Shown here piece by piece: positions 1 to 63,295 of a stretch of DNA of 64,000 nucleotides (its first letter is position 1; every line of letters starts with the position of its first letter). A program made the position numbers and the translations under genes. The DNA comes from Mimachlamys varia. Its lineage: Eukaryota; Mollusca; Bivalvia; Pectinida; Pectinidae. The notes below the pieces were generated by a model. The model did no database searches. It saw only the letters and a list, made by a program, of their open reading frames with translations, and was not told the origin of the DNA. The DNA lies in assembly GCA_947623455.1 (NCBI GenBank), contig OX392545.1, positions 23,857,501-23,921,500 on the forward strand, in the 5' to 3' direction.

Positions 1-1731
1 TAGAGTGGACTATATTCCCTGTTTAGTAGTAGAGATGCAGTCAAGGCTACCGGACAATAACATGACGCCATTTTGGCGCCATGTTGACCTACGTTACGTC
101 AACGCTTTGCACGTCGCCTCAGATAACACACATTATAGCTTTGCGTTAATCATTAAAGTGATTATGATTATCAAAAAACGCTCTGTTAACGTACAAAGAC
201 CAAAACTTTTATGAATTTGAACAAATGACATGATTTTACAAAATATCTGAAATGTAAATATAACCACTGAACGTCTTCCAGAAAGCAATATTGGTGCAAA
301 ATAAATATTCATGACGTTATATTGTTAATCCTCCAGATTGCATTCATTAGAAAATAAATACAATCTGATAGACGTTCAATGGCTTAACAAAAACGAGACA
401 ATCTAGGCCGAGGGTATTTCGATAAAAATAGCAAGTACTGCATATTTCAGAACATCCACCGGAGAAATTATTCCAATCAGCTAGTAATTTGAACTGTATC
501 AACATAAATCAAATATATCAAAGATTTTTATTTGCCCTCAGCCAGATTTTGTGTGCAACAGGATATCTTTTATGGATAAAATAATGTTGAACATATGATG
601 TAGTCTGGCCGACGCTTGTTTGACCTGGGCGAGTCTTTTCTGTTTTCCGGTTTCCAAATTAAGACATTTTGTGTGCTAACTTTACCTTTAGGCTAGACAA
701 AGCTTCAGACATTTAGTAAAGGATTTGATAATAGGTGACTGAAATAATACCATTTGCAGTTCGATCTTTAATCTCTAGTATGTGTATTCAACATAGTTTA
801 AAGTACTGCCATAGAAAGACCATTTATTCAGTAATTTACCTTCAACCAACTGAATTAGACCGACTACAACGGGTTAAAATCGTAATTAAAAATGAAATGT
901 ATTTTATGCGCTGAGGGAACTGAATCTAGTTAGTTTCATATTGCATCTACCAATTTCTCAAATGGCGTCTGGTCTTCCAGACGCTTTAAGAGTGGTCTTG
1001 CATGTTATTTCCGTCATGAAGAGACACTAACTCCCTCAAGCCCATTTAATTACAGACTATAGGTGAGACTTGATGAACCAATATCTGGTAGACGGATAAT
1101 TTTACCTCAGATATTTACAATGTCAGCTTAAAATTATTTTATAAAGAGTAAGAAAACAGATTATCGGTTTGTACAAGCTGAGCGAGACATTCGGAGATTA
1201 AAATAATAACGTAATAAACCTAGACCAGCCGGACCCGAGAAGATATCAGAGCTAAGATGTCATTAAGCTGGTACATGTAGACTAAAAACCCCAAAGGTTG
1301 TCCGTTACCGGGCTTTTATTAGAAATGGTTGTTTAAGACAAGATAATTTATGTTGAAGCTAAAAGTGCAACTTTTAACGTAAGAAAAGGGTTATTAACCT
1401 CCGTTTTTGTTCATTTTACTTTTATATTCGTATCGTTTTTTTTAATTACAGTATTTCACGTACCAGCTGGAAACGCATGGTTATTTTAATTAGGCTTAAT
1501 GGAGGATTTTTTCAACAAGATAAACTTAAGTGTCAATATATACTTAACAGATACGTCGCTTATCTGGCTACCTGTACTACTGAGCCTTCCCAGTATTACA
1601 TGTATATACTGGGCCTTCTCGCAAATATTATGCATCATTGATTAAATATGATAAAACGGGACTAACTAAACGCTTATACGCTTAGAAAAAGAATAGCATT
1701 TACTGGAACTGGGGTAAATAATTTGTACGTG
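1..1731. other. No recognisable feature
   Basis: A+T-rich sequence with stop codons in all frames apart from a short chance frame at 5-214. The only structure seen is a small imperfect palindrome near 1588-1612 (CCCAGTAT facing ATACTGGG). No gene, RNA or repeat family was recognised. Confidence 0.6.
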
Positions 1732-3045: not shown

Positions 3046-3885
3046 CGTAAAGGAATACGTAACGTGTGGTCATATTTCTGGGTGTACTTAAAACTGTGTA
3101 CATTTTACATAGATTGGAAAAAAGAAACCACGAAAGCTGGTGTTACTTAATAGGTTTAACCGTATAAACAAATTACTGTGAGGTTTGGAGAACTTTTGTA
3201 ATGGTCCCCAAATATAGTTAGTAGCGGGCAATTTCGCGATCGGCCGAGCCTTAATAGCAAAACAAACATGTTTAAGAAAGTACGGGAAAATGAGAGTGAA
3301 TTGGTTCTATCCTATATGTAAGCTTCAAAACTTTTCGTCCTTCCGGTCGTTCAGTGCCGCGGAAAACGACTTCATACAGTTCTTCTTGCCTGCATTTTAT
3401 TTTTGCCACTCAACAAATAATTAGTTTAAAATATATCCGGTAAAATATCATGCCGAGGCACAACCATTATACGTTTTGCAAGTCGTTGTTCCTGATTAAC
3501 TAATTTAATGTCCTCCATATTGTTTTGAGTTTCCATTTTTCCGAACTGAAAAGCTTTGGAATGACATCAGTTGATAACTCGATACTACTGAGATATTCTA
3601 AAAATATATATATACCATCCAAATGTATTTTCCATATCGCATATTGTACAATGCCGCATTGACCTGCAAAACGTGACTCACGTCACTATTAAGACGGGTG
3701 CACTGATTTTTTCCACTCATGTTTTGACGGATAAACACACATCTTGTTTTCATTAAAACGTCGATCAATGATTTTTGTAAGTTTTTAAACGTATCTATAA
3801 GAAACAATTCACATTATCGAAATAGTGGTCAAGGAGGCCGCCATTCCTGTATAAAGTCGAACCGAAACCCCCAGAAAACAGAAGA
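3046..3885. other. No recognisable feature
   Basis: Spacer before the first minisatellite. No feature supported. Confidence 0.5.
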
Positions 3886-5010
3886 TCAGGAAGGGCAGAT
3901 TTACCTTGTTGTCAGGAAGGACAGTTTTACCGGATGCACTGGAATAACAGCTTTACAATACCAAGTGCTCGAAAGGGCAGCTCGACCAGTTGCCGGGAAT
4001 GCCCACGTAAAGAGATCATGGGCCTGAAAAAAATCGTGAGTTTTGGACCACCAGCTTAAGCTTTCGTTCCCAAGCACCAGGTAAAGCTGCCCTTCCTGAG
4101 CACCAGATAAGCTGCCCTTTCTGACCATCAGGTAAAGCTGCCCTTCATGAGCACCAGGTAAAACCGCCCTTCCTGATCACCAGGTAAATTTGTCCTTCCT
4201 GAGCACCAGGTACAGCTGCCCTTGTTGAGCACCAGGTAAAACCGCCCTTCCTGATCACCAGATAAATTTGTCCTTCCTGAGCACCAGGTAAAGCTGCCCT
4301 TTCTGATAACCAGGTAAATTTGTCCTTCCTGAGCACCAGGTAAATTTGCCCTTCCTGAGCACCAAGTAAAGCTACCCTTTCTGAGCAACAGGTAAATCTG
4401 TCCTTCCTGAGCACCAGGTAAAGCTGACCTTTCTGATCACCAGGTAAAGCTGCCCTTTCTGATAACCAGGTAAATCTGTCCTTCCTGAGCACCAGGTAAA
4501 TATGACCTTCCTGAGCACCAGGTAAATATGCCCTTCCTGAGCACCAAGTAAAGCTGCCCTTTCTAAGCGCCAGGTAAAACTGACCTTCCTGATCACCAGG
4601 TAAATTTGCCCTTCCTGATCACCAGGTAAATTTGACCTTCCTGAGCACCAGGTAAATCTGTCCTTCCTGAGCACCAGGTAAATATGACCTTCCTGAGCAC
4701 CAGGTAAATATGCCCTTCCTGAGCACCAAGTAAAGCTGCCCTTTCTAAGCGCCAGGTAAAGCTGCACTTCCTGATCACCAGGTATATTTGCCCTTCCTGA
4801 TCACCAGGTCAATTTGTCCTTCCTGACCACCAGGTAAAGCTGCTCTTTTTGATCACCAGGTAAAGCTGCCCTTCCTGATCACCAGGTAAATTTGCCCTTT
4901 CTGATCACCAGGTAAATTTGTCCTTCCTGACCAGCAGGTAAGCCGCCCTTCCCGGACATCTGGTAAAGCTGCACTTTTTGAGCACCAGGTCAAGCTGCCC
5001 TTTCCGAACA
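3886..5010. repeat. 26-bp minisatellite
   Basis: Tandem units of 26 bp with the core CCTTCCTGAGCACCAGGTAA followed by a variable six-base tail (ATTTGT, AGCTGC, AACCGC). About 36 units run from roughly 4074 to 5010. At the left edge (3886-3932) about two units occur in the opposite orientation, separated from the main array by 140 bp. Neighbouring units differ at the same few positions (GAGC/GATC, T/C), as expected for unequal exchange. Minus-strand frames through the array (for example 4372-4767) arise because the unit lacks stops; they are not genes. Confidence 0.95.
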
Positions 5011-6375
5011 ACCAGTAAATGTGACATCCCCGGATATGTAGTAACTGTGATTGAACAACCGGTAAAAGTGACATCCCCGGTTATCTAGTAAATGTGATGG
5101 AACACCCAGTAAAGGTGACAACCCCGGATATCTAGTAACTGTGATTGAACAACCGGTAAAAGTGACATCCCCGGTTATCTAGTACATATGATCGAACACC
5201 CAGTAAAGGTGACATCCCCAGATATCTAGTAACAAATCCGATATCTCGTAAATGTGATCAAACAACCGGTAAAGGTGACATCTTTGGATATCTAGTAAAT
5301 GTGATTGAACATTCGGTAAAGGTGACATCCCCGGATTTCTAGTAAATATGATCGAACACCCGGTAAAGGTGACATCTCCGGATATCTAGTAAATATGATC
5401 GAACACCCGGTAAAGGTGACATCTCCGGATATCTAGTAAATATGATCGAACACCCAGTAAAGGTGACATCCCCGGATATCTAGTACATATGATCGAACAC
5501 CCAGTAAAGGTGACATCCCCAGATATCTAGTAACAAATCCGATATCTCGTAAATGTGATCAAACAACCGGTAAAGGTGACATCTTTGGATATCTAGTAAA
5601 TGTGATTGAACATCCGGTAAAGGTGACATCCCCGGACTTCTAGTAAATATGATCGAACAATCGGTAAAGGTGACATCCCCGGACTTCTAGTAAATGTGAT
5701 CGAACAATCGGTAAAGGTGACATCCCCGGATATCTAGTAAATGTAATCGAACACCTGGTAAAGGTGACATCCCCGAATATTTCTAGTAAATATGATCGAA
5801 CACCCGGTAAAGGTGACATCCCCGGACTTCTAGTAAATATGATCGAACAATCGGTAAAGGTGACATCCCCGGACTTCTAGTAAATGTGATCGAACAATCG
5901 GTAAAGATGACATCCCCGGATATCTAGTAAATGTAATCGAACAACCGGTGAAGGTGACATCTCCGGATATCTAGAAAATATGATTGAACATCCGATAAAG
6001 GTTACATCCCCGGATTTCTAGTAAATATGATCCAACACCCGGCCCCGGGATCATGAAACAATCTTAAGTCTAAAATTGTCTTAAGTTTTTACTTAGCCAA
6101 TCACAAATAACGTTACAAAAAGTAACGTCATACCTGATTGGCTAAGCACAAACTTAAGTCTTAGACTGTTTCATGACCTCGGGGCCTGGTAAAGGTGACA
6201 TCCCCGGACTTCTAGTAAATGTGATCGAACACCCAGTAAAGGTGACATCCCCGGATATCTAGTAAATGTGATCGAACACCCGGTAAAGGTGACATCCCCG
6301 GATATCTAGTAAATGTGATCGAACACCCGGTAAAGGTGACATCCCCGGATATCTAGTAAATGTGATCGAACACCC
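5011..6375. repeat. 47-bp minisatellite
   Basis: Units of 47 bp containing GGTAAAGGTGACATCCCCGG, then ATATCTAGTAAATGTGATCG, then AACACCC. About 26 units, interrupted by an inserted element at 6041-6186. The left part (5010-5230) is more degenerate and includes a repeated variant block with CAAATCCGATATCTCGTAA (near 5225 and 5535). The repeat of that block about 310 bp away implies duplication of several units together. Confidence 0.95.
6041..6186. mobile_element. 146-bp palindromic MITE inside the minisatellite
   Basis: A nearly complete palindrome. The left end is GGCCCCGGGATCATGAAACA; the inverted right end is GGCCCCGAGGTCATGAAACA. The arms continue through TTAAGTCT and TTAGCCAATCA to the centre near 6110. 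It splits one 47-bp repeat unit cleanly, so the empty site can be read from neighbouring units. Its ends resemble those of the element at 49009-49180, suggesting one family. Confidence 0.85.
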
Positions 6376-8666: not shown

Positions 8667-8865
8667 AACACGAAGATTTGAGATATACATGTTGATGAAG
8701 ACTAAAGGCAGCATTCTGTATCTTTGTATGATATAAAGGTGGACATTTATAAAATTGTCCATTAGTAAACTCACTATTTGCGATTGAGAATCATGTCTAA
8801 GGTCTCACTTGTTGATGTGGCATTTCCTTAGATGTGATCTAGATTTACTTGGCGGAAGTCGTCGA
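8667..8865 (+). mobile_element. Penelope-like element, degraded 3' part
   Basis: Diverged copy of the end of the reverse transcriptase frame (GTTGATGAAGACTA, then the GATATAAAGGTGGACAT region) followed by the start of the 3' untranslated region (TTACTTGGCGGAAGTCGTCGAT). It stops abruptly where an oppositely oriented copy begins. Confidence 0.6.
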
Positions 8866-8867
8866 TA

Positions 8868-9242
8868 AACAAAATAGAGAATACCGAAGCGTTAGAAAAA
8901 TCATAATCAGAACTTAAAATCGATTTAACTAGGGGAAACATATGAATAAGGAAAGATTTACATGCAGACCCTTGTAAAAGTACAAGAGAATAAGACCAGG
9001 TGTTCCGGAACAAGTAAGCGTCTTCAGTTTCATCAATGACACCCACCATGTAATTATTGATCACATCCAAGTAAACATTGAAATGAGAACATAGTCATTG
9101 TCAATCACAACAAATAAGCATTCTCATGAGCATACTCAGAAACGTCTATCTTCGTATCACACAAAGATACAGATTAAAGTAGAAGACGATTTGCCTTACG
9201 GTTGGCGTCCTCTTCATCATCGACGACACCCGACACTTAAAT
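8868..9242 (-). mobile_element. Penelope-like element 3' region, inverted neighbour
   Basis: Minus-strand copy of the same 3' region. The plus strand reads AGAGAATACCGAAGCG, then AATCGATTTAACT, then ACCAGGTGTTCCGGAA, then the CATCAATGACACCCACCATG block. With the plus copy at 8667-8865 it makes an inverted junction at about 8866. A second small scrap of the same tail is at 9207-9242. Confidence 0.75.
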
Positions 9243-18115: not shown

Positions 18116-18384
18116 ATTTCGGTAAGCACATGGAGCATGTGTTCAAACTATGTAGAGAGTATTATTCCGCTTTCATTGTCTATAAAAAAAATTCAAATAA
18201 TTCTGGGAAAAAAACAAAACAATCTAACATACCAGTAACACTGTCGTACGAATAGTACAGCAGTATTATGTTATTGTGTAAAATGCGACGGTAAATAAAA
18301 ATTCGGGAATCTTGACATATTATCGGAACAGGAAATTGGGTATGGGACAAAAACCTGACCCTTCCGCTTCTAGTTTAGAAATTA

Positions 18385-18545
18385 ATTTTGGATTCCCATC
18401 TTTTGGCCCCTAGTATCACTGACGAGTTTCAGAAGGAAGAAACAGCGGCATGATGCAGTTTAATTCATCTTTGCGGCATACTGTATCTATTACTAAATTA
18501 AAAAGGTGCAGCATATGTGTGTTGTTTTATTTCATTTCAAAATAT
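18385..18545 (+). mobile_element. Hammerhead element (retrozyme-like) fragment
   Basis: Contains, in order, GATTCCCATCTTTTGGCCCC, the ribozyme at 18413-18456, GCAGTTTAATTCATC, GCGGCATACTGTATCTATTA and AAAAGGTGCAGCATATGTGT. It matches the other family members on the plus strand. The far part of the unit is absent. Confidence 0.8.
18413..18456 (+). ncRNA. Degenerate type I hammerhead ribozyme
   Basis: Stem I GTATCA pairs imperfectly with TGATGC. The core CTGACGA is intact. Stem II has drifted (GTTTC AGA AGGAA), and GAAAC is present. The stem III/cleavage segment reads AGCGGCA rather than AGCTGTA, so the U16.1 partner is lost. Self-cleavage is unlikely. Confidence 0.75.
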
Positions 18546-22244: not shown

Positions 22245-22395
22245 CAAGATGACGTTACACACATGCTGCACCTTTTTAAATTTAGTGATATATGTAGTAT
22301 GCGGAAAAATGAATTAAACTGCATCAAACATCTGTTTCGTCCTCCTATGACTCTTCAGTGATGCTTGGGACCGAAAGGTAGGAATATGATACATG
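22245..22395 (-). mobile_element. Hammerhead element (retrozyme-like) fragment
   Basis: The plus strand carries GATGACGTTACACACATGCT, GCACCTTTTTAAATTTAG, TAGTATGCGGAAAAATG, the inverted ribozyme and GACCGAAAGGTAGGAAT. The distal half of the unit is not found. Confidence 0.85.
22321..22364 (-). ncRNA. Near-intact type I hammerhead ribozyme
   Basis: Minus strand: stem I GCATCA and TGATGC pair over 6 bp. The core CTGAAGA and GAA are intact. Stem II (GTCA TAGGA GGAC) keeps three pairs plus one A-G mismatch. Stem III is AC, loop AGAT, GT. The cleavage triplet is GUU, which is allowed (NUH) but usually weak. It may retain slow activity; this is inferred from the consensus only. Confidence 0.75.
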
Positions 22396-36112: not shown

Positions 36113-36507
36113 ATTTATGTTGAAACGGCGGAATTAAAACGACTCTGGTCATTGTAATAAAGGGACAAGAACTTAATCTTTTAAAAATTAAATGTATACC
36201 CAAAATTACATGTAGACGTTAGAGCACGAGTAACACGTAAGGGCTTTTCTTTGTATAGTGTCATATTCCTTCACAATTGGTTGTTGTATCGAAATTTAGA
36301 GTCAGTGTTTGGAACGGTTTGAATCACTTAGTAGAATGATTTAAAATATAGAATGATGAAAATAATATGACTAACATGATCATGTTCCAATTGCATCCAT
36401 GTTGAATCTTTCGTGTAATGACCAATTACATGCCTGCCAGTCTGTCAATAGTGGTCATTATTTGAAAATAATGATCCTTGTAAAATTCATGCATATATTG
36501 TTCTTTA
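36113..36507. other. No recognisable feature
   Basis: Spacer between a retroelement tail and the hammerhead element. Confidence 0.45.
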
Positions 36508-36957
36508 AGATGACGTAACACACACATATGCTGCACCTCTTAAATTTAGTAATAGATACAGTTTGCCGAAAAAATGAATTAAACTGTATCATACAGCTGT
36601 TTTGTCCTCCTCGGACTCTTCAGTGATGCTCGGGGCAAAAAAGGTAGGAATCCAAAATTTCTAAACTAATGTAGAAGCAAAATGGTTTGGTGCGTAAACC
36701 CCTTTAATTTATTAATTTAGAAGTAAAATTAAACTAGTTCTGTATAATTTCAAATCGTGTACTCCGAAAATGTGTATATTAAGTACCGTGCCACTACTCA
36801 AATGAGATTAACTGTGGCTATGGAGGCTCCAGCAAACCTCGGAGACTAAAAAATCCACCAGCAGAGTCTGCCACCCCCTATCATACAGATGACGTATCAC
36901 ACTCATATGCTGCACCTCTTAAATTTAGTAATAGATACAGTATGCCGAAATAAAAGG
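36508..36957 (-). mobile_element. Hammerhead element, one full unit plus start of a second
   Basis: The unit start GATGACGTAACACACACATA at 36508 recurs as GATGACGTATCACACTCATA at 36889, giving a 381-bp unit in tandem. The first unit holds the inverted ribozyme (36586-36629), AAAAAGGTAGGAATCC, then a long distal part (CTAAACTAATGTAGAAGC, AAATTAAACTAGTTCTG, GTGCCACTACTCAAATGAGA, CTCCAGCAAACCTCGG, AAAAATCCACCA). That distal part is shared with 43811-44165. The second unit is cut after TATGCCGAAA by a deletion reaching AAAGGTAG. Tandem units with one ribozyme each are the hallmark of retrozymes. Confidence 0.85.
36586..36629 (-). ncRNA. Inactivated hammerhead ribozyme
   Basis: Minus strand: GCATCA, core CTGAAGA, stem II GTCC GAGGA GGAC (perfect), then AAA AC where GAA AC is required, loop AGCT, GT, A, then TGATAC. 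The G12-to-A change in the catalytic core should abolish cleavage; stem I has one mismatch. Confidence 0.85.
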
Positions 36958-37691: not shown

Positions 37692-37800
37692 GAAAGATGC
37701 CGTAACACACACACATGCTGCATTTGATAAATCTAGTTATAGATACAGTTTTCCAAAAAAAAATAAATAAAACTGCATTGTAAAGCTGTTTCGTCCTTTT
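37692..37800 (-). mobile_element. Hammerhead element, truncated
   Basis: The plus strand has GATGCCGTAACACACACACA, TGCTGCATTTGATAAATCTA, ATAGATACAGTTTTCC, then AACTGCATTGTAAAGCTGTT and TCGTCC. It ends inside stem II, so only the 3' half of the ribozyme (37775-37797) remains. It lies 130 bp from the 3' end of a Penelope-like copy in the same orientation. Confidence 0.75.
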
Positions 37801-43700: not shown

Positions 43701-43810
43701 TAGAAGATAAATATTCCAGAACTTCCATTAGTTGAATCATTGTCATAGATTTTCCCCATGTCCACGTGTTTGCTCTCCCCGTGCAAACCGTTCTTGTACA
43801 GTAACTGTAA
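40791..43810. other. About 3 kb without a firm feature
   Basis: Several chance frames: 40963-41157 plus, 41167-41490 minus (107 codons, Lys/Arg/Gln-rich middle), 42662-42844 plus, 43274-43546 minus. None shows a domain I recognise or clear splice support. No repeat family was recognised, so this is the longest apparently unique stretch. It would be the place to look for introns of a gene starting at 40758. Confidence 0.4.
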
Positions 43811-44165
43811 GATGACGTAATACACAGATATGCTGCACCTCTTAAATTTAGTAATAGATACAGTATGCCGAAAAATTGAATTAAACTGCATCATACAGTT
43901 GTTTCGTCCTCCTAGGACTCTTCAGTGATGCTAGGGACCAAAAGGTAGGAATCCAAATTTTCTAAACTAATGTAGAAGCAGAAGGGTCAGGTGCGTAAAA
44001 CCCCTTTAATTTATGAATTTAGAAGAAAAATTAAACTAGTTCTGTATAATTTAAATAGTGTACTACGATAATGTGTATATTATGTACCGTGCCACTACTC
44101 AAATGAGATTAACTGTTGCCTCTGGAGGCTCCAGCAAACCTCGGGGACTAAAAAATCCACCACGG
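43811..44165 (-). mobile_element. Hammerhead element (retrozyme-like), near-complete unit
   Basis: The plus strand runs GATGACGTAATACACAGATA, GCTGCACCTCTTAAATTTAG, TAATAGATACAGTATGCCG, the inverted ribozyme (43888-43931), GGGACCAAAAGGTAGGAATC, CTAAACTAATGTAGAAGC, GTGCCACTACTCAAATGAGA, CTCCAGCAAACCTCGGGGAC and AAAAAATCCACCAC. It matches the 36508 unit almost end to end. No open frame: the element is non-coding and would need proteins from another source to move. Confidence 0.88.
43888..43931 (-). ncRNA. Intact type I hammerhead ribozyme
   Basis: Minus-strand RNA, 5' to 3'. Stem I is GCAUCA (43931-43926). The core is CUGAAGA (43925-43919). Stem II GUCC UAGGA GGAC is at 43918-43906. GAA follows, then stem III AC, loop AACU, GU, then A17 at 43894, then the other stem I strand UGAUGC (43893-43888). 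Stem I pairs 6 of 6, stem II 4 of 4, and stem III is the minimal 2 bp. The cleavage triplet is GUA, so the cut should fall between 43894 and 43893. All invariant core positions match the known consensus. Two-base-pair stem III variants often act as dimers in tandem RNA. Activity is predicted, not shown. Confidence 0.92.
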
Positions 44166-45529
44166 AGATAGTTTTTTACACGTTCAACTTCCAGCCACAC
44201 TAACACGACTTCTAGCATCTTTAGATATAGTATCTTCACTGAAAGTTTTTCAAATTATCTAAAACTTGTAAACTGTTTATGAAATACTTAATCTATGTTT
44301 TTACATACAAGTCGTTACGAATTCTCTGTTCTCTGTAGAGTACCTAGTAGTGTAGTTTAAAGGCGACGGTACATCCGTACTTGTGAGACATTATAAATCA
44401 CTCGTCATCGCCTCGTCAAACGCTTTTTGTGATTATACAAATGGAAGTAAGCACTAAGTCACCCTCCCACTGCCCTCTGGTACGGCAGGTTCAAACACCC
44501 TATCCCAGAAATATCACGGGTCATAAAACCGACAAATGGGCAGGACATCTCGCGTTATTTGCCGAGAAGTTCGATTCATTGGTCAAAGATCTTTAGCCAA
44601 CGGTCGTTGGTTTGTAATGGTAACGGTGATGTCGAAATACTGCCCTCCATCGATTATTTATTGCAAGTTTTCTATAAAGCCCAATTGGTACTGAATCCCT
44701 TTGTTGACGATGTGGCAAAGCGGTGGCAAGGTTGCTAAGTTATGGGACAGTACACATTTCTACTCAACATCGATCTACGATCTACGATGAATGGCTTTTC
44801 AATAGCAAAGAGGAATAGCGCCTTGCCCGTAGGTGTTGGTGAGCGGCCGAGATTGCCAAGCTTGCTCGGCATTACAATATATCATACAAAACACGGTTGT
44901 AGAAGCAGTAGGCACAGATTTAAAATGGTTTGCTTCTAATGCGACAGACATATATATCTTGTAAGGTTCACTTTAACATGGATTTTATGACATACATGTA
45001 TATATTTTCTATATATTTTTTAGAATATTTTGATGTAGTCGGCTGTGAAAAAACCACTGTTGGTGTTCACGGCTGATTTTTTTCTTATGCTCCATATCCA
45101 AGCGGTTACTGGCTTCGTTCTTTACGTATCGACTTTTACTTCCGGTTTTTGCACAATCGTTTTATATAGACATACATGTAGGAAAGTACATGTTTTATAG
45201 TGAGAGAAAAAAAACAAATGAAAAAAAAACCAAACGCGTTGTGATGAGGGTTCTTGTGAAAAGATGTAAGTCTCAAGGAAGAACTCTAATTTATACGCGC
45301 ATTGGTGTAATTTTTATTCCAATAGTTGACCAAAAAAAGTGAATACAAAAATATTGGTTGCTTGCCATGCAAAGTCATGCTGTTTTTCCCCACAATTCAA
45401 GTGCAGTCGTTTTGGAAAATAATGATGTTCGAATGGACAACCTTGAAAATCGAAAGCTGAAAAACCTGGCCTTGTGTTGTTGTCGTCTCAGCGCTATCAT
45501 CTCCGTATTCCTTGATATTATCTCATACC
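44166..45529. other. No firm gene; dispersed repeat E at about 44255-44345
   Basis: The block AAACTTGTAAACTGTTTATG, ACATACAAGTCGTTACGAAT and TCTCTGTTCTCTGTAGAGTA (about 44262-44343) has an inverted counterpart at 49245-49345. The rest is unremarkable. Confidence 0.5.
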
Positions 45530-49345: not shown

Positions 49346-50310
49346 CATTCTAAGAACAGTATGATATTGAACTCATGTCTTGGAGACTTGGACTACGAAT
49401 CATAGATTTCTCCATTTCCTTTTTTTGCCGACAGAGCTTCATTGAATTACATATTGTTTTCTTTTGAATCTTTAGAGACGAAAACGTATTAATCAACAAC
49501 GAATGATAATCACAATTCTTATAATCTAATATCTAAATTAATCGTCTGCAGTATTTTAATAATTTTTTATCACTTTGCACATGCGTGTCAGACTATTTAC
49601 TTCTAGCATTCTCTGAGTTAAACTAGAGTTCAACATTACAAAGAATTCAATATGTAGATCATTATTTTGCTTATGTTGAATTTTCGTTGGTGAACCAAAG
49701 ATCCAAATTGTGTTATTCGTTTCCCGCCTTTTCTCCGTAGCCTTGGTGATTGGGTCCTCACTTCATGTATGTTTTTACTCGGTATCATTCTAAGTTACCT
49801 ATGTGTGTTTGAGTATGGAATTGGACACGGCAGTTATTGTGGTACATACGAACCCATTAAGTCACCAAAACTTTTCGTCCATTCGGAACCCTTCTTCAAT
49901 CACCTCGGAACACCATCACTATACATTTACGACACTGCACTTCCTCTGGCTTTTTTTAAATAATGTTCAGCAGTGCAAACATACTGTACGTATCAAGGGA
50001 TTACCCAGATAAATTTATAGGTGATACTTGGGATAATTATAATGTATGACCTACGATCAGATATCCCGTTAAATCTCGCGAGAGTTTACAGAAAAAAACA
50101 TCAATGTGTAGTCTTTATATTTGTTTTTACTGCATACTGAAAAAATACATTTTATACTCCTACAAGCAGTTTGAGGATATAGTAAGTACTCATCAAATAT
50201 CAAATTTCTATGTTTTATATATATAAAAGCAAATTTTATCTATTTAGTGTTCACACACGCATTTTCGTACTTTTTCCAGTACTTTATTTGTGTAATATCT
50301 TTCGTGATTT
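49346..50310. other. No recognisable feature
   Basis: Overlapping short frames at 49769-50012 show no domain. Nothing else supported. Confidence 0.45.
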
Positions 50311-50374
50311 GATCACTTTCTCATATAGATAGTTGTATTTTATGATCATGCATGCAAGTTTAATATATTTCGTA

Positions 50375-50418
50375 CTCCTACTGAAGAGTCCTAGGAGGAC
50401 GAAACAGCTGTATAATGC
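50375..50418 (+). ncRNA. Hammerhead ribozyme with replaced stem I strand
   Basis: Core CTGAAGA (50381-50387), stem II GTCC TAGGA GGAC (50388-50400), GAA, AC, loop AGCT, GT, A (cleavage after 50412), then TAATGC. The catalytic core is perfect. The 5' stem I strand is now CTCCTA, which pairs with TAATGC over only about two bases. The AC-AGCT-GT stretch is an 8-bp palindrome that would allow dimer pairing. Confidence 0.85.
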
Positions 50419-50670
50419 AGTTTTATTCATTTTTCGGCATACTGTTTTCATTAATAAATTTAAAAAGTGCAGCATATATGTTTGTTATGTCATCCTTCTT
50501 AAATGTAGATTTGATATATATTTCGTTCTCATATAGGTAGTTGTATTTTATGATCATGCATGCAAGTTTAATATATTTCGTACTCCTACTTTCAACATGC
50601 AGATTTGATCTCGTTCTCATATAGGTAGTTGTATTTTATACTCATGCATGAAGGTTTAATATATTTCGTA

Positions 50671-50714
50671 CTCCTACTGAAGAGTCCTAGGAGGACGAAA
50701 CAGCTGTATAATGC
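50671..50714 (+). ncRNA. Hammerhead ribozyme, second tandem copy
   Basis: Same as the copy 296 bp upstream: CTGAAGA at 50677-50683, stem II 50684-50696, GAA AC AGCT GT A, cut predicted after 50708. Stem I again lacks its partner strand. The two copies are nearly identical, so the tandem duplication is recent. Confidence 0.85.
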
Positions 50715-50884
50715 AATTTTATTCATTTTTCGGCATACTGTTTTCATTAATAAATTTAAAAAGAGCAGCATATATGTTTGTTATGTCATCCATCCTAAAT
50801 GTAGATTTGATATATATTTCGTTCTCATATAGGTAGTTGCATTTAATTCTTATACATGCAGGTATTCATTATTGACGGATTAAT

Positions 50885-54968: not shown

Positions 54969-56429
54969 ATTTGCGCTGCAACCCACTTTATGAACATTAC
55001 CAGCGGAAATGATTTCCATAAAGGTATAAAAGCCGTGGTTCTCGAAACGTAGCACATGATTTACTTATGACCTTTTAAATGTAGATCAAGCTTGTTCAAT
55101 GAGAGTTTTGTCGCTCCGCTTCGAATAACATGGAGACCGCCCCTGCGTCAAACGCTCAAGTGGCTAATTATTTTCATTGGCGTCAATTTCATTCAAACTG
55201 GACTGTTTCGGCAATGTCGTTTAAATGACTAAGCATACACAAAAGCAGGTAATAAACTTCTGATTTGGGGAAATAAACAAAACTAAACAATTGTTCTATA
55301 GTAAAAATGTAAATGTATAGATTGAAAGTCATTTTTTAACTTTTATAGTGCTATGAAATTTCAGCGGTTACATATATATATATCTACATGTAGCTTGAAG
55401 CCCTAGCGGTCGTCATGCAACTTGGAGGTAACGACTAGTCTTTTATCACTATGAACCTTAATAATATACTTTCAATCCTTATTCAATTGTAGTTATCCTC
55501 GCAATATGTTTGTACTAGGCTCTAAAGTCAATAGTCAGACATCACAATTCGTCAAAAACTGACAGCATGTAAACGTATATAAGACCAATGACAAATTACT
55601 GAATGGCGTGTGTATTGCCACAATTTATTTTAGAATTGAACATTATTTATACAGTAAATACTATTTTTAGTATCTGATGGCAACAAATGTCTAACCCGTA
55701 AACATTATTATTGATTGAGGGTGAACCACCAACGAAGAACAAGAAATGTACGTATGATACGAAAACGTTCTCCTGACCTTGATGACATCATGTATTATTA
55801 TGTACACATACCTCAGACGTGTTTCCAAGAACACGTGACAGTAGGTCTATAAATACATCTAGTGTGTCCCGTCCCTTATGTATCAAGTTTGTATTGAAAT
55901 CAAGACTTTATTGCTAGTTCTTTGATGTTTGCATTAGACCCTGGTCGATTGGAATTCTAAACTCATAATAATGTATTTAGCTATTGTACGTATCTGTTTT
56001 AATCTAACTGGAGACCTGCCAGGTGTAATAAGGACACAAGTTGACTGAATTAGCATATCTTCCAGCACGGAACGTTTGTGGAGCGGCAGGCAACCTAATA
56101 AGACGTCATCCCAGGAAGCTGTCCCGTGAAATCACTTCCTCACAACGACTCCACGCTCTCAGATCGATAGTCAACAATCCATACTGCGTTCATGGGTGAG
56201 TGAATTTCAAATGTAATTGAAATGGTTCTGCACGAGAGAGGTTCATGCGTATTACTCTGCTGGAGGTAAAGTCAGCGCTTAGCCTCAAAGCAGACGTTTT
56301 TATTACAAATGGATATAAAAGCTATGTTCTGTGAAAGAGACGACTGATGGCGATATACGAGAGAAGTTTTGTTGTAGATAAAGAATCCACAACTTTTCTG
56401 CTGTAGAGGATTTATGCTTAATTGATTTA
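54969..56429. other. No recognisable feature
   Basis: Unique-looking sequence with no supported gene on either strand. Confidence 0.5.
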
Positions 56430-56625
56430 TGATTTACATGGCGGGTGTCATCGATGAAACAGAGGACGGTTACTCTTCTGGAACACATGGTCGTATTCTC
56501 TTGTACTTTTACAAGGGTTTCCATGTGGATTCTTTTCTTTTTTCGTATTTTGCTCTTGCATGTAGTTAAATCGAGTTTGAGCTCGGATTATGGTTTTGTT
56601 GACGCTTCTGTATTCTCTATTTTTT
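56430..56625 (+). mobile_element. Penelope-like element 3' tail
   Basis: GATTTACATGGCGGGTGTCA, TCGATGAAACAGAGGACG, CTTCTGGAACACATGGTCGT, TTACAAGGGTTTCCATGTGG and AAATCGAGTTTGAGCTCGGA, ending GACGCTTCTGTATTCTCT. The 130-codon frame at 56445-56837 merely reads through it. Confidence 0.82.
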
Positions 56626-57974
56626 ATATAGCAGATTTGGACAGAGACATTGGTCAAACATTGGTAACAGCACGAGAGAAATGCCTTTCTTTTGTTGTTA
56701 TGTACAAATCATTAATAAGGTCTACGGGGAAAGTTGTCTGGGACAGGCTCAAAATTATTCCACTATACAAAAGAGATGTACGGACACTTTTTGTACGAAT
56801 GGTGGTTCTTAAGAATTTCTGTTTGAAAAGAAGATGACATTCCTGCCATATGCGAAAAGTTAAGTTTTTAGAATATGACGTTGTACACGTAAATGGGCAG
56901 ATGATAGTTGTTCTGTTTCAGGGCTAATTGGAGTCTGAGCGAGAGGATGAGGTATGTTCTGCCTGAGAGGGCTAATTGGAGAGATATATATTCTGTACGA
57001 GAGGGAGGATGAGAGAGGTGATGACCGAAAGGGTTAATTATAGACGTTTCCAGAGATGGCAAATATTCTTCATTAGAACTTCACGAGAACTTCATTTGTA
57101 TGAAAGTTAATAATAAACTGTCTCTGTACTTAGCGTGATAGTTTATTGAACTGGTCTGCGCGAAAAATAACGTTTAAAAAATACATTTTCAGGAATCGTC
57201 AATGGAAGCCGAGTAGGACCTTTCTCTCTATGCACATGTGGCGTAGCATAACACAGGAACAGATTTACAGTATACCAATACGTTTCTCGACCTTTTAAAA
57301 CAACTTAACAAATGAATCGCCTTACACGTTACGTTCAATGATTCAATAGTCCTTCCGTTTGTACGGTTACATTTGACTCGGCGACTAGCCGAAGGTTTTA
57401 CGCACAAATTTACGACAAGAGTTTGCATTCATTGACTCTACATTATATCCATGAGCAGAGTTACCTCCCTTTGATGCTCTCCCTGGGCGAGTAAACGTTG
57501 ATTGTGTTTGTTCACCGTACGGTCCAGAGGACACGCACCCGTTCCTGTCCGGGATACTGCTGAGACTGAAGATATTAACCACGTGACCGGCATGTCACTT
57601 GGTACACCTGTTTTGTTCTCACCTGTAAGTGGTACAAGTGTCGTGTTTGACTTTATGCTTCACCGATTTCTCGGTCTACCGGTAGTTTGACTTTACGCTT
57701 CACTGATTTCGCGATAGGGAGTCTAGGTATCGATATTGATGTATGCAGACTACGGCAGTTATTTACATACGGCTTACTATCGCCTGAACTTGGAAGTCTC
57801 TGTACGTTTGATTCTGTTGCGTAAACACAAGCTTTTAAGCAACCCAGAAAAGTGTTTGAGTGTTGGCGCGCGAACACACGCATGCACATGAACCCATAGC
57901 GGTAAATCTTGGCCCACTGAGCACACTTATGCATACACGCAAACATTTGCGTATATGGTCATAGTTAAAAAAAC
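56626..57974. other. No firm gene; two small direct repeats
   Basis: GGGCTAATTGGAG is repeated at about 56921 and 56967. A 39-40-bp duplication around TTTGACTTTATGCTTCACCG lies at 57648 and 57687. Frames at 57385-57582 and 57653-57946 (minus) are unrecognised. Confidence 0.45.
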
Positions 57975-58355
57975 CCAAAACGGAGAATACCACAGCGTCA
58001 GCAAAACCATAATCTGAGCTCAAAATCGATTAAACTATAGACAAAATAAGGAAAAAGGAAAAAAACTACATGGAGACCTTCGTAAAAGTACAAGAAAATA
58101 AGATAAGGTGTTCCGGAAGAGTAAGTGCGTTATGCTTCATTGACGACACCCGCCATGTAAATGTTGGTCACATCCAAGTAAATATCAATCCTCAAAATGA
58201 GAACCGAGTCATCATTGTCAATCACAACAAGTAAGCACATTAATAAGCAAACTCAAAAATGTTCATCTTCATATCACACAGAGATACAGAATATTTTTCG
58301 ATGATATCAAGATGGCGACCATAAAACGTGCCCAAAGTCTTCATCAACCTTACAT
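57975..58355 (-). mobile_element. Penelope-like element 3' part
   Basis: The plus strand runs GGAGAATACCACAGCGTCAG, CAAAATCGATTAAACTATAG, GGAGACCTTCGTAAAAGTAC, GTGTTCCGGAAGAG, TGACGACACCCGCCATGTAA, GAACCGAGTCATCATTG and CATCTTCATATCACACAGAG, up to AAGATGGCGACCATAAAACG inside the coding end. It is the full tail of the family but lacks the reverse transcriptase core. Confidence 0.85.
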
Positions 58356-58504: not shown

Positions 58505-58600
58505 ATATTTTTTCAAATTTTAAATCGTGTACTACGAACATGTGTATACTGTATCATGTATCTTCGTACTACTCAAATGAGATTAACTGTGGCTATGGCT
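58505..58600 (-). mobile_element. Hammerhead element, distal fragment only
   Basis: TTAAATCGTGTACTACGAAC, ATGTGTATACTG and TACTACTCAAATGAGATTAA then CTGTGGCTATGG match the distal part of the 36508 and 43811 units on the same strand. No ribozyme remains. It lies about 150 bp from a Penelope-like fragment of the same orientation. Confidence 0.65.
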
Positions 58601-61869: not shown

Positions 61870-62095
61870 TTAGAGAATACCGAATTTAATGTTTACTTGG
61901 ATATGACAAAGATTTACATTGTGGGTGTCGTCGATGAAGCAGAAAAACGCTTACTCTTCCGGAACACCTTATTCTCTTGTGCTTTTACGATGGTCTCCGT
62001 GTAAATATTTCTTTTGATCCTAGTTTGACTCTAGTTTAATCGATTTTGAGTTCGGATTATGATTTTGTTAACGCTGCGGTATTCTCTAATTTTTA
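61870..62095 (+). mobile_element. Penelope-like element tail with inverted terminus at its left
   Basis: A short inverted terminal piece (AGAGAATACCGAA, 61872-61884) abuts a forward tail: TTTACTTGGATATGACAAAG, GTGTCGTCGATGAAGCAG, CTTCCGGAACACC, TTTAATCGATTTTGAG and CGCTGCGGTATTCTCT. The same head-to-head arrangement occurs near 8866. Confidence 0.78.
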
Positions 62096-63164
62096 TTTCA
62101 ATACTTAAAATGAGTCATTTTCATAGACAGTGATTAAAAACAGAATTTATGTAAACGTTTAAAAGCTAAAAAAAACTACAATATAGACATTTTCTTATTT
62201 ATGACAAGAAAGGAATGCAACAGACAAGGGGACTGAAGCTAATGATGATTTTTACATGTATAAGGGGGTTTGCTGAACCTTATTTCTTCGCCAAAAAACA
62301 TTAACATTAAAAAGATAAAAAACTAATAATTTGTTGAAATTAGACGGTATAATATCCTCCTTATATGACTTGGGGGAGTGGTCAAATTTGTCTGATGATT
62401 GCAAGAAATTATATGGAATGGATGAATGCACGAATGGAATGACTTTTTGAATGAAAAAGAAAGCGAATGAATAAAGTATGGCGAATGATAGCCCTCATGT
62501 GAGGACATTATTTGTATATATTTGTGTCTTTCAAAATAAAAAAAATATTGATGATGATGAAGTCTGTTGATAAGACATTTACGTAAAACACGGAAACTGT
62601 TACAGGCTCGAGGTGGACGTCGTTTGGATTCGTCACCAATAACAACGAGATGTATGTCAACAGCTTACATGATTAGTACTTGAGGCGTTCTGATATTACC
62701 GAATTCTTAATAATGAGGGCAAAATAAGGCAGGGCGGGTTTCCATCTCCTTTACAAGTGTTCATTACACTGAGGAGAAAACTGTTCAACCTTCACGAAGA
62801 CGGGAGGACGAGATTGGTATTTATTGGAGTGTAGAGGGCTTATGTATGTTATATTGAGTACAACAAATACCAAAACTAGGAGCGACCATTCATGCCCCGT
62901 TAGTTTGATGTTTGTTAGCTTACAGTCAATGGTTGGAAAAGTCTACCGGAAGTAAAACAGTTAACCAAAATTAAGTTAACGGTAATACCATTTTACATTT
63001 TCCTAGATAGCCACAGTCTCGTTTCAGTATTGTCAAGGTTCATAATGAACACAATTTCAACGTACGCGGTTCGAATTATAATACTTATTCATTGATTTTG
63101 TAAGTTCAAAAATTATAGAGGTTTTATACACCTGTCCCTTTTGTTAGAACAAGTCGATTCCCAC
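62096..63164. other. No recognisable feature
   Basis: A+T-rich; no supported gene or repeat. Confidence 0.5.
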
Positions 63165-63295
63165 CTTTTCGCCCCTGGCATCACTGACGAGTCCTAGAAT
63201 GACAAAACAACTGTACGATGTTTTTCGGCATACTGTGTCTATAAACAAATTTAAAAGGTGCAGCATGTGTGTGTGTTACGTCATCATTTAGGTCT
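63165..63295 (+). mobile_element. Hammerhead element fragment
   Basis: GATTCCCACCTTTTCGCCCC, the ribozyme at 63178-63221, then TTTTTCGGCATACTGTGTCT, AAATTTAAAAGGTGCAGCAT and GTGTGTGTGTTACGTCATCA. It lies about 180 bp upstream of a Penelope-like copy in the same orientation. Confidence 0.8.
63178..63221 (+). ncRNA. Inactivated hammerhead ribozyme
   Basis: GCATCA, core CTGACGA, stem II reduced to GTC facing GAC around CTAGAAT, then AAA AC instead of GAA AC, loop AACT, GT, A, CGATG. The G12-to-A change and the weakened stem II argue against activity. Confidence 0.82.

What the first reader, a model, noticed from the sequence alone, without database searches (positions are those of the whole stretch)
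43888..43931. Intact type I hammerhead ribozyme in a mollusc-like dispersed repeat
Seen directly: a 44-nt minus-strand segment satisfies every invariant position of the hammerhead fold (CUGAAGA, GAA, GUA cleavage triplet), with 6-bp stem I, 4-bp stem II and minimal 2-bp stem III. Established: such minimal-stem-III type I hammerheads occur in Penelope-like elements and in metazoan retrozymes. Inference: this copy can self-cleave at 43894/43893, and its element makes small circular RNA.
Basis: partly seen in the sequence, partly recalled or inferred. Interest (0 to 1): 0.88.

Follow-up and report, generated by a model that had tools for sequence, protein, structure and literature searches.

The report
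Scallop retrozyme with hammerhead ribozyme
A short self-cutting RNA motif really sits here, inside a small mobile element of a scallop, and where its copies end suggests that it is copied by the machinery of a separate, telomerase-like retrotransposon.

Summary
Confirmed: window 43888-43931 (-) is a complete type I hammerhead (RF00163, 30.4 bits, E 1.1e-5, full model, below the 34-bit gathering score). It lies in a 354-bp, 5'-truncated copy (43809-44162 -) of a 379-nt retrozyme in a scallop genome, which holds 5875 exact core-plus-stem-II matches (reversed control 0). Of 40 good copies, 37 end at one point 85-86 nt past the cleavage site; 5' ends scatter and 38 run through the cut. Units within a locus agree at diagnostic sites in 41 of 44 comparisons, against 51% between loci: one circular or multimeric RNA template. 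In the same genome, 10 of 10 closely related Penelope-like copies that stop do so 78-85 nt past their own hammerhead cut, like published internal initiation by a Penelope enzyme (85-92 nt, PMC11167929). So: a new member of the metazoan retrozymes, probably mobilised by a Penelope-type enzyme. The window copy has one ribozyme and cannot release a unit-length circle alone. Cleavage and circles were not tested. Related loci carry 45-nt head-to-tail hammerhead arrays.

The parts
43888..43931 (-). intact type I hammerhead ribozyme
   Evidence: RF00163, 30.4 bits, model 1-45; 6 + 4 + 2 pairs, core intact
43893..43894 (-). predicted self-cleavage site (GUA|U)
   Evidence: sequence; position 17 of the hammerhead numbering (recalled)
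43809..44162 (-). retrozyme copy, 354 bp = 0.93 unit, 5'-truncated by 25 nt, 3' end at the family's fixed point
43809..43893 (-). 85-nt tail from cleavage site to fixed 3' end (inferred reverse-transcription start)
36507..36953 (-). retrozyme copy, 1.18 units with head-to-tail junction: one full unit whose hammerhead is broken (GAA to AAA), preceded by a 68-nt piece of the previous unit's tail
18353..18522 (+). 5'-truncated relative with broken hammerhead
22246..22385 (-). 5'-truncated copy, stem II mismatch
37693..37797 (-). 5'-truncated diverged copy
50380..50497 (+). 5'-truncated copy starting at the ribozyme core, inserted into a minisatellite; stem I 5' strand missing
50676..50790 (+). 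second copy of the same insertion after local 296-bp duplication
50582..50608 (+). empty minisatellite site without the insertion (no clear duplication or loss of target)
   Evidence: sequence printed, read by eye
58516..58598 (-). short internal fragment of the unit
63009..63288 (+). old diverged copy (70%) with decayed hammerhead

Best explanation
The hammerhead belongs to a scallop family of non-LTR retrozymes: 379-nt units with one type I hammerhead. Multi-unit copies are transcribed, the ribozyme frees units, and ligation makes circles (inferred from published mussel and axolotl work, not tested here). A Penelope-type reverse transcriptase then starts at a fixed internal point about 85 nt 3' of the cleavage site, copies round the circle (or along an uncut multimer) and drops off at variable points. 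This leaves insertions with a fixed 3' end, scattered 5' ends and often more than one unit (the footprints are shown; the enzyme is inferred). The window copy is one such insertion.
For: Hammerhead. Element: (5208 first-look candidates, 40 scored; apart from the window copy the long matches are 93-95% identical). Fixed 3' end: 64 of 80 copies at ruler positions 361-379 or 1-20; 37 of 40 copies of at least 88% identity at 374..8, and 7 of the 8 of these that lie outside the best-match loci. 0 of 40 5' ends within 3 nt of the cleavage site, 38 of 40 run through it. Tandems: L038 has three cleavage sites 379 apart. One template: 41 of 44 within-locus agreements at 5 diagnostic sites against 50.7% of 1459 between loci; 3.7% divergence within (15 pairs) against 5.6% between loci (625 pairs). 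Similar geometry in Penelope-like elements of this genome: of 24 copies of one family examined, 14 stop; the 10 that are 98.8-100% identical to a running-on reference stop 78, 78, 79, 80, 80, 80, 81, 82, 85 and 85 nt past their hammerhead cut. Published enzyme: cut 26 nt and start 111-118 nt into the ORF, so 85-92 nt apart, with genomic ends at the start sites (PMC11167929). Diverged family 2 loses homology 86-88 nt past the last hammerhead in L023 and L024.
Against: The match is not exact: retrozyme 85-86, Penelope 78-85. Three diverged Penelope copies stop at 72, 72 and 81 nt and one old one at 55; family 2 gives 74-84 in L011 and 93-99 in L010, which have a gap and an insertion in the tail alignment. 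3 of the 40 retrozyme copies end elsewhere. Tails of retrozyme and Penelope element show no significant sequence similarity and no fold better than shuffles. In vitro the Anolis hammerhead is not needed for insertion, and no reads ended at its cut (PMC11167929). A homogeneous linear multimer would leave the same footprints as a circle. 32 of the 40 copies lie in loci picked by best match, so long copies are over-represented; 5' ends depart mildly from uniform (KS p 0.04). No RNA data.
Confidence: 0.66

Rival explanations
1. Retrozyme copied from uncut linear multimers rather than circles: multi-unit transcripts serve as template and ribozyme cleavage is a side effect or an end-processing step.
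For: Same fixed 3' end and partial tandems expected; PMC11167929 suggests unprocessed RNA as the main template for the Anolis enzyme in vitro.
Against: Requires source arrays that are homogeneous for each subfamily marker to give 41 of 44 agreement. The ribozyme's paired and core positions are less diverged than body and tail (24 of 1482 against 474 of 13792 cells, Fisher p 8e-5; cells not independent; hammerhead loops, 19 of 432, left out), which fits cleavage mattering for spread.
Confidence: 0.3
2. SINE-like element mobilised by a LINE that recognises the 3' terminus ...GTTACGTSATCTT.
For: Fixed 3' end with 5' truncation is also the LINE/SINE signature (general knowledge). No LINE search was made here.
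Against: No regular target-site duplication: exact shared words of 9 nt or more between flanks in 4 of 37 copies, against 2.7% of mismatched flank pairs; a clean empty site at window 50582 (by eye); no poly(A) or simple-repeat tail in the flanks printed; templates run through the tandem junction. The similar distance in Penelope elements is unexplained by it.
Confidence: 0.13
3. Ordinary satellite DNA: the ribozyme is a passenger, copies spread by DNA-level duplication.
For: DNA-level duplication does happen locally (window 50306-50863; repeated unit blocks in L009, seen by eye).
Against: Dispersed copies on many contigs with a common 3' end and independent 5' ends and flanks.
Confidence: 0.04
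4. Decayed relic without ribozyme function in this copy.
For: Score below the gathering cut-off; non-palindromic loop III; single copy; no RNA data.
Against: Core and stems intact, identical 44 nt in another locus (L055:1355), five core copies against 0.00 in shuffles.
Confidence: 0.12

Closest known systems
Metazoan non-LTR retrozymes, mussel Mytilus galloprovincialis (Cervera and de la Pena 2020, PMC7229834; parts 1-4 of 6 read)
   Same: Type I hammerhead with short stem III, about 350-390-bp repeat, low GC, thousands of copies (about 5000 there, 5875 core matches here), tandem copies, co-occurring Penelope elements.
   Different: Different species; sequences not compared. Here the insertion ends are mapped: fixed 3' end 85-86 nt past the cut, scattered 5' ends, mostly no target duplication. 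No RNA evidence here.
Penelope-like elements with minimal hammerheads; Anolis Poseidon in vitro (PMC11167929; parts 1-3 of 4 read)
   Same: Tandem or partial-tandem insertions, hammerhead, fixed internal start: 85-92 nt past the cut in Anolis, 78-85 nt in 10 scallop copies.
   Different: Penelope elements encode reverse transcriptase and GIY-YIG endonuclease, and those read here lack a true stem III; the retrozyme unit is 379 nt, carries no such ORF and is unrelated in sequence.
Newt satellite 2 and schistosome Sm-alpha hammerhead repeats (recalled; mentioned in PMC6155905, passages read)
   Same: Type I hammerheads in few-hundred-bp repeats; dimeric pairing through an elongated stem III.
   Different: The 45-nt arrays at L009, L010, L011, L023 and L024 have no sequence besides the ribozyme and one spacer base.

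Membership tests
Rfam RF00163 Hammerhead_1 | score at or above gathering cut-off (34 bits) | tested here: not met
   30.4 bits for the window copy; 35 of 40 listed genomic rows pass
Type I hammerhead ribozyme | CUGANGA, GAA, NUH site, three stems, open stem I | tested here: met
Type I hammerhead ribozyme | self-cleavage | not testable with these tools
   needs in vitro transcription
Metazoan non-LTR retrozyme | short unit (about 150-450 bp) with one type I hammerhead | tested here: met
   379-nt spacing of cleavage sites in L038
Metazoan non-LTR retrozyme | tandem dimers to multimers | tested here: met
   up to 2.78 units; the window copy itself is 0.93 unit
Metazoan non-LTR retrozyme | GC below 45-50% | tested here: met
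   37.5% and 39.1% in two units of L038
Metazoan non-LTR retrozyme | non-coding, no LTR, primer-binding site or polypurine tract | tested here: inconclusive
   no frame of 150 codons or more over the copy among the five longest shown for the window; terminal repeats, PBS and PPT not searched for
Metazoan non-LTR retrozyme | expressed as 170-400-nt linear and circular RNA | not testable with these tools
   no RNA data
Penelope-like element | reverse transcriptase with GIY-YIG endonuclease in the element | tested here: not met
   379-nt unit; the Penelope ORF at L059 has both domains but no significant similarity to the unit
Penelope-like element | 3' insertion end in a fixed zone about 80-90 nt past the hammerhead cut | tested here: met
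   retrozyme 85-86 nt; Penelope 78-85 nt in 10 of 10 close copies that stop, 72, 72, 81 and 55 nt in four diverged ones
LINE-mobilised SINE | regular target-site duplications | tested here: not met
   37 flank pairs; empty site by eye

The most novel reading that the evidence does not exclude
The hammerhead marks the place where a Penelope-type reverse transcriptase starts: a roughly fixed distance of 80-86 nt from cut to start, kept in retrozymes and Penelope elements whose tails are otherwise unrelated, so that any small RNA with a hammerhead and a suitable tail becomes a passenger. The 45-nt arrays, in which every unit is a whole ribozyme plus one base, would then be a source of 45-nt self-cleaving RNAs or circles.
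Probability: 0.33. Interest if true: 0.82.

Novelty: new member of a known kind. Interest (0 to 1): 0.57.

Why it matters
Which enzyme spreads animal retrozymes is an open question; Penelope elements were proposed because both carry hammerheads, occur in tandem and co-exist (PMC7229834, PMC7761336). A similar cut-to-end distance in retrozyme and Penelope copies of one genome, and with the one Penelope enzyme studied in vitro, turns that guess into a testable prediction. No title or abstract start listed in eight searches states it (some searches listed only 20 of 60, 12 of 23, 10 of 524 and 12 of 19); I opened seven papers, mostly in passages. The library lacks most subscription papers and three papers on Penelope hammerheads that I asked for, so novelty in print is not established. 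The same holds for the 45-nt ribozyme arrays; hammerheads 'in tandem' in Penelope elements are mentioned in PMC7229834 and PMC7761336.

Tried and rejected
Separate family at 50381/50677: rejected; it is a 5'-truncated insertion in an 88-bp minisatellite later duplicated. Sequence homology between the retrozyme unit and the three Penelope loci: none significant. Shared fold of the tails: nothing beyond shuffles in the five folded; the retrozyme tail can form a hairpin (GAUGCAGU/ACUGUAUC) that would compete with stem I, noted but not tested. Target-site motif: none clear. Exact 85-nt identity of Penelope and retrozyme ends: my first reading, from three Penelope ends, and dropped. The clustering at query 269 only shows L060's own end, and 11 further copies put the ends at 78-85 nt. 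Rows dropped before counts: L015, L029 and loci contained in others before (53 sequences kept of 59); copies under 88% or touching a locus end before (40 of 80 kept); copies under 90% before (36 kept). Frequency of the arrays and the end geometry of the telomeric Penelope (L059): not answered by the server.

Full report
Observation. Infernal places RF00163 on exactly these bases over all 45 model positions, 30.4 bits, E 1.1e-5 for a 401-base search, just below the gathering score of 34; the whole-window search at gathering score returns nothing. The 25-nt core has five copies in the window at up to 3 mismatches, while 100 shuffles give 0.00. Of seven hammerhead-like 44-mers found in the window, only this one passes all core and stem checks.

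Host. The genome is 975 Mb in 71 contigs and the window lies at C19:23857501-23921500. A potassium-channel frame in L028 is 85% identical to Mizuhopecten yessoensis, 79% to Ylistrum balloti and Pecten maximus and 76% to Argopecten irradians, the four best of 59 proteins. So it is a scallop or close relative; the species was not determined.

Element. Window 43800-44170 has 5208 first-look candidates in the genome; of the 40 scored one is the window copy, and the long matches of the others are 93-95% identical over window 44162-43809 or nearly so. A full unit is 379 nt: L038 has three cleavage sites 379 nt apart. The core with stem II intact occurs 5875 times (2805 + 3070), and the reversed pattern 0 times. 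In 80 copies found in 53 sequences (320,365 bases, the window included) 64 end at ruler positions 361-379 or 1-20. Among the 40 copies of at least 88% identity, 37 end at 374..8, no 5' end lies within 3 nt of the cleavage site, 38 run through that site and 27 exceed one unit. 32 of the 40 lie in the 29 loci picked by best match, so long copies are over-represented; of the 8 others, 0.19 to 1.18 units long, 7 have the fixed 3' end. 5' ends depart mildly from uniform (KS p 0.04). The window's copy is 0.93 unit with one hammerhead. It can be cut once but cannot release a unit.

Template. At five sites where the family is split into subfamilies, neighbouring units of the same insertion agree in 41 of 44 comparisons, units of different loci in 50.7% of 1459. 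Divergence within loci is 3.7% (15 pairs) against 5.6% between loci (625 pairs); 1 of the 15 pairs, L043, is far more diverged at 10.9%. The units of an insertion therefore come from one repeated template: a circle, or a multimer whose units were nearly identical. A template that had been cut and left linear is excluded for the 38 of 40 that run through the cut site.

Ribozyme maintenance. Among 36 copies of at least 90% identity, paired and core hammerhead positions differ from the majority in 24 of 1482 cells, body and tail in 474 of 13792 (Fisher p 8e-5; cells are not independent), hammerhead loops in 19 of 432. Across 113 distinct hammerheads the outer pair of stem I is G-C in 52, A-U in 39, G-U in 8 and unpaired in 14.

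Who copies it. Penelope-like elements exist in this genome. A GIY-YIG search gave 56 rows, many with long open frames, a number of them near contig ends and head to tail. One (L059) has reverse transcriptase and GIY-YIG. All three that I read carry a hammerhead with no stem III but a 6-nt palindrome: ACUAGU, ACCGGU, ACAUGU (assigned by eye; Rfam did not report them). Query L060:3700-4300 gave 36 rows. I examined 24 copies of this family: L060, 12 and 11. Ten run on past the region (L062-L064, L066-L068, L073 and the diverged L069-L071) and 14 stop. The ten that are 98.8-100% identical to a running-on reference stop at 78, 78, 79, 80, 80, 80, 81, 82, 85 and 85 nt past the hammerhead cut; three of a diverged subfamily at 72, 72 and 81, and one old copy (83%) at 55. 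One of the 14, L075, also begins exactly at the cut, as a copy of cleaved RNA would. The retrozyme ends 85-86 nt past its own cut (a T matching the next unit's first base follows in 72% of 29 ends). In diverged family 2 homology is lost 86-88 nt past the last hammerhead in L023 and L024, 74-84 in L011 (gap in its tail) and 93-99 in L010 (extra bases before its tail). The purified Anolis enzyme starts reverse transcription 111-118 nt into an ORF whose hammerhead cut is at 26, so 85-92 nt apart, and genomic ends fall on those starts (PMC11167929, parts 1-3 of 4 read). The tails themselves are unrelated by BLAST and share no significant fold. I read this as mobilisation of the retrozyme by a Penelope-type enzyme, proposed earlier on shared hammerheads, tandem copies and co-existence (PMC7229834, parts 1-4 of 6 read; PMC7761336, passages). 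The agreement of distances is close rather than exact, and was noticed after the fact.

Integration. Flank comparison shows no regular target duplication: exact shared words of 9 nt or more in 4 of 37 copies, against 2.7% of mismatched pairs; the best is 15 nt at L052. The window holds a natural empty site: the minisatellite around 50306-50863 contains one repeat without the insertion (ACTCCTA|CTTTCAACATGC at 50582) beside two with it, and by eye no target base is duplicated or lost beyond 1-3 nt of shared letters (sequence).

Ribozyme arrays. Five fetched loci carry head-to-tail 45-nt units, each a whole hammerhead plus one base: L009 19 units (15 intact), L011 13 in the longest chain found (8 intact; 17 by the repeat finder), L024 20 (6), L023 11 (3), L010 8 (4). 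Four sit where the related family 2 element has one hammerhead and are followed by its tail; the tail after L009 is closer to family 1. Repeated unit blocks in L009 suggest growth by DNA duplication (by eye). One L010 unit doubled in a script folds by minimum energy into a double hammerhead with an 8-bp ACAGCUGU stem III (-27.5 kcal/mol). The three natural stretches folded (a pair in L023, a pair and a triple in L009) have other minimum folds, in which stem II strands of different units pair. So whether arrays cleave is open. How many such arrays exist did not complete by the server.

Verdict. A real, intact hammerhead in a new scallop member of the known metazoan retrozymes. The new content is the insertion geometry that links it to Penelope elements, and the 45-nt arrays. 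Cleavage, circles and the enzyme remain to be shown at the bench.

Noticed in passing
L009:4683-5536, L010:4354-4700, L011:4310-5072 (-), L023:3605-4098, L024:3507-4404 (-): Head-to-tail arrays of 45-nt units, each a complete hammerhead plus one spacer base, embedded in retrozyme-like elements.
   Followed up: partly
L075 (G000:C5:2799010-2799270): An 80-nt Penelope insertion that begins exactly at the hammerhead cut and ends 80 nt past it: a possible footprint of cleavage in the living animal.
   Followed up: partly
G000:C17:23-68 kb and within 100 kb of ends of C1, C2, C4-C6, C9-C12, C16; L059: GIY-YIG Penelope-like elements near contig ends, in places head to tail with a period of about 4.97 kb and 741-codon open frames.
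   Followed up: partly
G000:C18:13297385/13298803/13300213, C13:4027229/4028639/4030049, C3:2113496/2114910/2116324: Tandem units of about 1.41 kb sharing the Penelope hammerhead region: probably internally deleted, non-autonomous Penelope derivatives.
   Followed up: partly
L061:1498-3694 and 3805-6001: Two Penelope copies head to head, 2197 bp at 100% identity: recent fold-back or an assembly artefact.
   Followed up: no
window:43857-43892 (-): Just after the cut, GAUGCAGU can pair with ACUGUAUC 20 nt on, competing with the 3' strand of stem I; the family 2 tail of L024 has a like hairpin with another loop. Possible product-release switch.
   Followed up: partly
window:50306-50863: 88-bp minisatellite interrupted by a truncated retrozyme and then duplicated; the empty repeat is preserved.
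   Followed up: yes
window:26126-26313, 61914-62094, 57983-58160, 8865-9053, 56424-56627: Another dispersed repeat of about 190 bp, 79-88% alike, near the copy at 36.5 kb.
   Followed up: no
window:12952-14000: Repetitive stretch with strong AT skew and a repetitive 311-codon open frame.
   Followed up: no
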